From NCBI GenBank assembly GCA_025454255.1, contig JALOOU010000002.1, positions 62,001 to 126,000 of the forward strand: a stretch of 64,000 nt of DNA. The letters are read 5' to 3'. The position numbers and the translations under genes are program-made. The DNA comes from Desulfobacterales bacterium (GTDB lineage: Bacteria; Desulfobacterota; Desulfobacteria; Desulfobacterales; SpSt-501). Below, piece by piece: positions 49,719 to 51,083 of the stretch. Numbering within the stretch: position 1 is the first letter of the stretch; every line of letters starts with the position of its first letter. The notes beneath the pieces were generated by a model. The model was not told the DNA's origin and did not search any database. It was given only the letters and a program-made list of their open reading frames with translations.

Positions 49719-49748
49719 TTGACAATGTCGGCGCTCGCCCAATATGAT
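49719..49748 (+). promoter_or_regulatory. Consensus sigma-70 promoter of the riboswitch transcript
   Basis: TTGACA (49719-49724), 18-bp spacer and TATGAT (49743-49748). The predicted start near 49755 lies about 15 bases before the aptamer. Confidence 0.7.
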
Positions 49749-49770
49749 CGGCGCCACTCTTGCGTCGAAA

Positions 49771-49846
49771 AGGCAACGTCACCGAAAGATGGCGGCGCAA
49801 AACCGTGGGTCTAAAGCCTGTTGGGCCATGACTGTCTGGTTGCCGA
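49771..49846 (+). ncRNA. c-di-GMP-I (GEMM-I) riboswitch aptamer
   Basis: The segment matches the GEMM-I pattern. An outer P1 pairs GGCAA (49772-49776) with TTGCC (49840-49844). A hairpin CGTCACC-GAAA-GATGGCG is capped by a GNRA loop and is followed by the conserved GCGCAAAACC and GTGGGTCTAAAG. In the Vc2 c-di-GMP riboswitch these parts are the tetraloop hairpin, the ligand-flanking ACGCAAAGCC and the tetraloop receptor GGCCTAA. Aligned by eye, the base at Vc2 position 20 is G, which favours c-di-GMP over cGAMP. A promoter is upstream and a terminator downstream. Confidence 0.85.
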
Positions 49847-49858
49847 CTGCAGCAGCAT

Positions 49859-49897
49859 GAAAAGCCCCTGGGGTAGCGGTCCCGAGGGGCTTTTGTT
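49859..49897 (+). terminator. Riboswitch expression-platform terminator
   Basis: AAAAGCCCCTGGG and CCCGAGGGGCTTTT pair around TAGCGGT and are followed by GTTTT. It lies 12 bases after the aptamer and 29 bases before the M23 peptidase ATG, where ligand binding would decide whether transcription reads through. Confidence 0.88.
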
Positions 49898-49925
49898 TTG
49901 GCGTATTCGCGCGGGGTCAACCTCC

Positions 49926-50876
49926 ATGAAAAAGAAAATATCCTTTGTCATCCTGGCCACCACCGGTTCCGCGGCGAAGCAGTTCTGCCTGTCGCGGGCG
50001 GCGCTGCGCTGGTGGGTGGTCGTTGCGGTCGGACTGATCGGCTCGAGCGCCTTCGTGGGGGCCGACTATGTGCGCCTCAAGCGCGATGCCCTGCAGCTCG
50101 CGCAGCGCGAGGCGGAGCTCTCCGGCCTGCTGGCGAGCCAGGGGGGTGAGGTCGACCTGCAGCGGCGGCAGATCAGCGAGTTCGCCGAGCAAATCAATCT
50201 GCTGAAAGATAAGCTCCAGGCGCTCAATCAGTTCGAAAAAAAGATCCGCATCATGGCGGACATCGAAAAACGGCCGGAGGCGGGCGCCCTTTTCGGCGTC
50301 GGCGGCTCTATCCCCACAACCATGGACCCCAAGGCGGTATTCACGGAGCAGCGCAACAGCCTGATGCGCGAGATGCACGCGCAGACCGCGCAGCTCGACC
50401 TGGCCATGGTCCACCAGGAGGACAGCTTCAACGCGCTGGTCACCCACCTCGAGCGGCAGCAGCGGCTGCTCGCCTCCACGCCGACCATCCGGCCGATCGA
50501 CCCGGCCGCGGAGTTCTGGGTCTCTTCCAAATTCGAGTGGCGGATCTCCCCCTTCACCAACCAGCGCGAGTTCCACAAAGGCTACGACATCGCCGCGCGC
50601 GAGGGCACGCCGATCTTTGCCACCGCCGGGGGCGTGGTCACTTTCGCCGGCAACAGGGGGCTGCTCGGCAAGACCCTCATCATCGACCACGGCCATGGCC
50701 TGACGACGGTCTATGGCCATTGCAGCCGGCTGCTCAAGTCTCAGGGGGAGAAGGTACGCCGCTGGGACCCGGTCGGTTTGGTCGGAAACACCGGCAACAG
50801 CACCGGCCCTCACCTCCACTACGAGGTCTGGGTCCACGGGGTGCCGGTGAACCCGGAAAAATACTTTCTCAATTGA
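49926..50876 (+). CDS. Membrane-anchored M23 (LytM) peptidase
   Basis: The 316-residue protein has one N-terminal membrane segment (WWVVVAVGLIGSSAFVGA, about 28-45), a coiled coil (about 55-105; LAQREAELSGLLASQGGEVD), and a C-terminal LytM domain. The zinc ligands are seen as FHKGYDIAA (HxxxD, about 217-221), HGHGLTTVYGHC and GPHLHYEVWV, so it should be an active peptidoglycan endopeptidase in the periplasm. ATG at 49926 is required by the upstream terminator. Expression appears controlled by the riboswitch. Confidence 0.92.
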   Translation: MKKKISFVILATTGSAAKQFCLSRAALRWWVVVAVGLIGSSAFVGADYVRLKRDALQLAQREAELSGLLASQGGEVDLQRRQISEFAEQINLLKDKLQALNQFEKKIRIMADIEKRPEAGALFGVGGSIPTTMDPKAVFTEQRNSLMREMHAQTAQLDLAMVHQEDSFNALVTHLERQQRLLASTPTIRPIDPAAEFWVSSKFEWRISPFTNQREFHKGYDIAAREGTPIFATAGGVVTFAGNRGLLGKTLIIDHGHGLTTVYGHCSRLLKSQGEKVRRWDPVGLVGNTGNSTGPHLHYEVWVHGVPVNPEKYFLN

Positions 50877-51055: not shown

Positions 51056-51083
51056 TTGTGCCGGGCCCCAAAACTGTTATAAT
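51056..51083 (+). promoter_or_regulatory. Candidate secA promoter
   Basis: TATAAT (51078-51083) is a perfect -10; TTGTGC (51056-51061) is a partial -35 at 16 bp. A transcript from here would have a leader of about 210 bases. Confidence 0.5.

What the first reader, a model, noticed from the sequence alone, without database searches (positions are those of the whole stretch)
49719..50876. c-di-GMP-I riboswitch controlling an M23 cell-wall peptidase
A consensus promoter, a GEMM-I aptamer with its GNRA-capped hairpin and receptor, an intrinsic terminator and a LytM endopeptidase lie in line. This suggests that c-di-GMP directly tunes peptidoglycan cleavage by transcription attenuation. Known GEMM-I targets are mostly motility, pilus, cytochrome or secretion genes; a cell-wall hydrolase would be a less usual direct target.
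Basis: partly seen in the sequence, partly recalled or inferred. Interest (0 to 1): 0.75.

Follow-up and report, generated by a model that had tools for sequence, protein, structure and literature searches.

The report
c-di-GMP riboswitch before M23 endopeptidase
A standard c-di-GMP-sensing RNA switch with its own promoter and terminator sits directly before a gene for a cell-wall-cutting enzyme, and the same pairing recurs in about 25 related genomes of sulfate-reducer-type bacteria, so cell-wall cleavage is probably switched (most likely off) by this signal there.

Summary
Window 49762-49847 (+) is a strong c-di-GMP-I (GEMM-I) aptamer (62.1 bits, gathering score 35). An 11/12 sigma-70-type promoter lies upstream and an intrinsic terminator downstream, about 26 nt before the start codon of a 316-aa M23/LytM-type endopeptidase with an intact active-site motif. 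The ligand-contact bases include G at Vc2 position 20, which predicts c-di-GMP rather than cGAMP. The linkage is not chance: a GEMM-I element precedes the orthologous gene (order folD - switch - M23 - secA) in 25 genomes of at least eight GTDB families of the order, although it is missing from four of seven genomes of the window's own genus. The terminator lies downstream of a complete aptamer, the layout of the C. difficile Cd1 OFF-switch and not of the Geobacter pilM ON-switch. In many relatives the terminator's 5' arm is complementary to the aptamer's GNRA hairpin, a candidate antiterminator; in the window's own copy this pairing is weak and not significant. Best reading: c-di-GMP represses an envelope endopeptidase by transcription attenuation. 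Ligand binding, switching direction and enzyme activity are untested. It is a new, conserved target of a known riboswitch class, of moderate interest.

The parts
49719..49748 (+). sigma-70-type promoter TTGACA-18-TATGAT
   Evidence: 11/12; TTGACA upstream of most orthologous aptamers
49762..49847 (+). c-di-GMP-I (GEMM-I) riboswitch aptamer, G at Vc2 position 20
   Evidence: RF01051, 62.1 bits, full length
49778..49793 (+). P2 hairpin with GAAA (GNRA) loop, GUCACC-GAAA-GAUGGC, one C.A non-pair
49860..49899 (+). intrinsic terminator (5' arm 49860-49873, loop 49874-49880, 3' arm 49881-49894, U-tract)
49926..50876 (+). M23/LytM-type metallo-endopeptidase gene, 316 aa, N-terminal hydrophobic (anchor-like) segment, M23 domain 216-310
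   Evidence: the anchor is read from the sequence by eye

Best explanation
A class-I c-di-GMP riboswitch that attenuates transcription of a membrane-anchored M23 (LytM-type) peptidoglycan endopeptidase. RNA polymerase starts at the promoter at 49719-49748 and transcribes the aptamer. With c-di-GMP bound, the aptamer stays folded and the downstream terminator hairpin forms, so the gene is OFF. Without ligand, the 5' arm and loop of the terminator pair back onto the aptamer (in many relatives onto its GNRA hairpin) as an antiterminator and transcription reads through, so the gene is ON. Shown here: aptamer identity, promoter, terminator, intact catalytic motif, conservation of the unit. Inferred: the ligand (from the conserved binding residues), transcription attenuation, OFF polarity, and enzymatic activity on peptidoglycan.
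For: The aptamer is full length at 62.1 bits. A GEMM-I element precedes the orthologous gene in 25 genomes from at least 8 GTDB families (searches compared by eye; confirmed by cmscan for fetched loci). The label clusters on the M23 tree: 8 changes against 16.3 for shuffled labels, 0 of 500 as low. A terminator hairpin follows the aptamer in all of the first 12 copies and in 8 of 9 fetched later. In Cd1, an OFF-switch, aptamer and terminator coexist and compete with an antiterminator, whereas in the ON-switch pilM they are mutually exclusive (PMC9262584); here they do not overlap. The terminator 5' strand complements the GNRA hairpin beyond shuffled strands (Fisher 2.5e-9; other aptamer regions 0.37, 0.93, 0.82), in loci fetched later (1.4e-4), and against 110 natural hairpins (2.3e-4). 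The motif CCUU[UC]GGG is in 15 of 36 terminator-like hairpins after GEMM aptamers and in 0 of 108 others. The genome encodes 11 GGDEF domains.
Against: In the window's own copy the antiterminator pairing is weak (p 0.18 and 0.38); it is also not significant in its sister species L037/L038 or in family f69. The sequences are related, so the combined p-values are too small. A non-pair in P2, seen in 20 of 20 M23-linked copies, failed to generalise: 5 of 9 copies fetched later have a fully paired P2. The riboswitch is absent from the same gene in four of seven genomes of the genus, so the control is dispensable. No ligand or expression data exist.
Confidence: 0.68

Rival explanations
1. The same riboswitch works as an ON-switch: ligand binding prevents the terminator, as in Geobacter pilM.
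For: A GEMM-I ON-switch is known in Geobacter (PMC9262584); no antiterminator was clear in the window's own copy.
Against: The terminator begins 12 nt after the aptamer and shares no base with it, so aptamer and terminator can coexist, the Cd1 OFF layout.
Confidence: 0.17
2. The aptamer senses cGAMP (GEMM-Ib) rather than c-di-GMP.
For: Most GEMM-I riboswitches of Geobacter sulfurreducens sense cGAMP (12 of 17, PMC8835794).
Against: The position equivalent to Vc2 20 (A14 of the cGAMP riboswitch) is G here and in all 12 aligned orthologues; the cGAMP riboswitch has A there and the G20A change gives cGAMP binding (PMC6274999).
Confidence: 0.07
3. A decayed, non-functional relic whose gene is expressed constitutively through leaky termination.
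For: It is the lowest-scoring of the well-preserved copies (62 bits against 72-81 in relatives), the element is missing in sister species (L035, L036), and two relatives show decaying copies (35-36 bits, L090, L098).
Against: All core binding residues, the GNRA loop, a near-consensus promoter and a strong terminator remain.
Confidence: 0.08

Closest known systems
c-di-GMP-I (GEMM-I) riboswitch, RF01051; Cd1 of C. difficile (flgB)
   Same: Aptamer fold, ligand residues, terminator downstream of a complete aptamer (OFF layout).
   Different: Target is an M23 endopeptidase; the candidate antiterminator seen in relatives uses the GNRA hairpin (P2), while in Cd1 it uses the 3' strand of the aptamer (PMC9262584).
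c-di-GMP-I switch of the C. difficile endopeptidase PPEP-1
   Same: OFF-type class-I switch controlling a secreted metallo-endopeptidase (PMC11477304).
   Different: PPEP-1 cuts surface proteins, not peptidoglycan.
EagA of Erwinia amylovora
   Same: Metallopeptidase-class peptidoglycan endopeptidase that acts in a c-di-GMP-dependent way and whose cluster responds to c-di-GMP (PMC7705223).
   Different: No riboswitch is described in the abstract; znu cluster, Zur control.
c-di-AMP riboswitch control of a cell-wall peptidase in Corynebacterium glutamicum
   Same: A cyclic-dinucleotide riboswitch governs a cell-wall-related peptidase (PMC9960051, title and abstract).
   Different: Different ligand and riboswitch class.
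MepM / ShyA-type DD-endopeptidases
   Same: M23 domain and catalytic motif.
   Different: Scores far below the curated cut-offs of the MepM, ShyA, NlpD, EnvC and DipM models.

Membership tests
c-di-GMP-I riboswitch (RF01051) | Covariance-model score over gathering threshold, full length | tested here: met
   62.1 vs 35 bits, positions 1-87
c-di-GMP-I riboswitch (RF01051) | GNRA tetraloop and ligand residues G20, A47, C92 (Vc2 numbering) | tested here: met
   Alignments; the Vc2 numbering is from my own knowledge
c-di-GMP-I riboswitch (RF01051) | Binds c-di-GMP | not testable with these tools
   Needs in-line probing or ITC
cGAMP-sensing GEMM-Ib | A at the position equivalent to Vc2 20 | tested here: not met
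   G in all aligned copies
Transcriptional OFF-switch of Cd1 type | Terminator that does not overlap the aptamer | tested here: met
   12-nt gap
Transcriptional OFF-switch of Cd1 type | Antiterminator pairing between aptamer and terminator 5' strand | tested here: inconclusive
   Supported in many relatives, not significant in the window's copy
Transcriptional OFF-switch of Cd1 type | More termination with ligand | not testable with these tools
   Needs in vitro transcription
Peptidase family M23 (PF01551) | Domain match and intact HxxxD / HxH motif | tested here: met
   H217, D221, H265, H296, H298 counted from the alignment
MepM, ShyA, NlpD, EnvC, DipM equivalogs | Score above curated cut-off | tested here: not met
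   103 vs 341 bits for MepM and lower for the rest

The most novel reading that the evidence does not exclude
In a large part of Desulfobacterales, c-di-GMP directly silences a conserved LytM-type endopeptidase through a GEMM-I variant whose terminator 5' strand invades the GNRA (P2) hairpin of the aptamer, an expression platform different from the described Cd1 and pilM ones, tying peptidoglycan remodelling to the sessile/motile decision.
Probability: 0.35. Interest if true: 0.6.

Novelty: new member of a known kind. Interest (0 to 1): 0.42.

Why it matters
It adds a conserved peptidoglycan endopeptidase to the likely direct c-di-GMP regulon of a major group of sulfate-reducer-type bacteria. 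The class-I targets named in the papers read here are mainly motility genes, pili, adhesins and surface proteins. If confirmed, it gives a direct and testable route from c-di-GMP to cell-wall remodelling, and a natural comparative set (including lineages that lost the element) in which to study how GEMM-I expression platforms evolve.

Tried and rejected
The P2 non-pair as a general signature of M23-linked switches: 20 of 20 in the first set, but 5 of 9 copies fetched later have a perfect stem, so I treat it as clade-specific. A shuffle-only test of the antiterminator may be too lenient, because GEMM-linked terminators share a motif, so I repeated it against natural hairpins and compared motif frequencies. 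Folding energy against shuffles gave nothing (z -0.9). Prefix folding gave no consensus antiterminator for the window's own copy. Two surveys of GEMM-I targets (PMC4418906, PMC1950547) are not held. Whether GEMM-I precedes M23 genes outside Desulfobacterales was not tested. The SecA query was in the wrong frame and was redone.

Full report
What is there. Rfam's c-di-GMP-I model (RF01051) matches window 49762-49847 on the + strand over its full length with 62.1 bits against a gathering score of 35. It is the only riboswitch found in the 64-kb window. A near-consensus sigma-70-type promoter (TTGACA-18-TATGAT, 49719-49748) lies 13 nt upstream. Twelve bases after the aptamer, a hairpin with 14-nt arms followed by a U-tract occupies 49860-49899. 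The start codon of the next gene is at 49926. The gene encodes 316 aa with an M23 domain at 216-310; the metal and catalytic residues expected of LytM-type enzymes are present (H217, D221, H265, H296, H298, counted from the alignment). The closest solved relatives are M23 peptidases of the ShyA/MepM sort, but the protein falls far below the cut-off of every named equivalog.

Is it more than chance. The window lies in a metagenome-assembled genome (87% complete) whose nearest named kin are Desulfobacterales MAGs. It has four GEMM-I elements; the other three precede what I read as a fibronectin/PKD-like surface protein, a polysaccharide chain-length (Wzz-like) protein and a PEP-CTERM protein (names read by eye from the translations, not searched). 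I searched 194 genomes of the order for the M23 protein (120 with a match at E<=1e-75) and for RF01051. Comparing the two lists by eye gives 25 genomes in which a GEMM-I element lies within 500 nt upstream of the orthologue, in at least eight GTDB families (f1, f8, f17, f29, f56, f66, f69, f71). The count is a lower bound, because only the best matches are listed. cmscan confirmed the pairs in the loci fetched. The neighbourhood folD - switch - M23 - secA is conserved. On the M23 tree the riboswitch label needs 8 changes against 16.3 for shuffled labels (0 of 500 as low), and within the window's own genus it is absent from L035, L036, L039 and L040. Repeated loss from an old association is the simplest reading; the tree has open forks, did not include families f69 and f71, and counted L092, whose contig ends 6 nt upstream of the gene, as lacking the element.

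Ligand. The base equivalent to Vc2 G20 (A14 in the cGAMP riboswitch, PMC6274999) is G in the window and in all 12 aligned orthologues. This predicts c-di-GMP. The genome encodes 11 GGDEF domains. Binding is not shown.

Mechanism. In the OFF-switch Cd1 the aptamer and terminator can coexist and compete with an antiterminator; in the ON-switch pilM they exclude each other (PMC9262584). Here aptamer and terminator share no base, the Cd1 layout. An OFF-switch then needs an antiterminator. In many relatives the terminator 5' arm and loop (ACGCCUUUGGGUGA) are complementary to the GNRA hairpin of the aptamer (GUCACCGAAAGAUGGCGAC). Against shuffled strands the combined p is 2.5e-9 over 14 cluster representatives, while three other aptamer regions give 0.37, 0.93 and 0.82. 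In nine loci fetched later (eight testable) the combined p is 1.4e-4, carried by L102, L103 and L105; one of them (L104) repeats a locus already used, and family f69 shows nothing. Against 110 natural hairpins the combined p is 2.3e-4. CCUU[UC]GGG occurs in 15 of 36 terminator-like hairpins after GEMM aptamers and in 0 of 108 others. Shared ancestry makes all of these p-values too small. The window's own copy does not show the pairing convincingly (p 0.18 and 0.38). I therefore rate OFF-type attenuation as most likely (0.68) and P2 invasion as the platform in a subset only.

Scope of control in the window. Only 26 nt separate the U-tract from the start codon, so there is no room for a second promoter downstream of the terminator, and any transcript running on from folD must also pass it. 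In several relatives with longer leaders (L041, L069, L070, L071, L076, L085, L087, L089, L100, L101) a second TTGACA...GATA element lies between terminator and gene, so control may be partial there. secA follows 426 nt downstream, with its own TATAAT box at 51078-51083 by eye and no + strand terminator reported between, so read-through into secA is possible but not shown.

What is known. I found no held paper on GEMM-I control of an M23 enzyme, but two main surveys of GEMM-I targets could not be read. Related precedents are the class-I OFF-switch of the endopeptidase PPEP-1 (PMC11477304), the c-di-GMP-dependent peptidoglycan hydrolase EagA (PMC7705223), class-I switches in prophage lysis modules of C. 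difficile (PMC3649979) and c-di-AMP riboswitch control of a cell-wall-related peptidase (PMC9960051). The finding is a new, conserved member of a known regulatory kind.

Noticed in passing
L041, L069, L070, L071, L076, L085, L087, L089, L100, L101 between terminator and ATG: A second promoter-like element (cTTGACA, then TATGATA or GTGATA about 13 nt later) lies downstream of the riboswitch terminator in relatives with long leaders.
   Followed up: partly
L090 (1274-1359), L098 (1108-1192), L093: Apparently decaying copies of the riboswitch before M23 (35-36 bits, altered GNRA flank); L093 keeps a similar terminator but has no aptamer over threshold.
   Followed up: partly
G015:C109, G023:C75 and C79, G044:C102, G026:C1: Tandem arrays of four to six GEMM-I aptamers within less than 1 kb in other genomes of the order.
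   Followed up: no
window 51078-51083: TATAAT box upstream of secA followed by a long secA leader of about 210 nt.
   Followed up: no
L006, L016, L023, L026, L032: Terminators after GEMM-I elements that do not belong to the M23 set also carry GCCUUUGGG, suggesting the motif is general to GEMM-I terminators in this order.
   Followed up: partly
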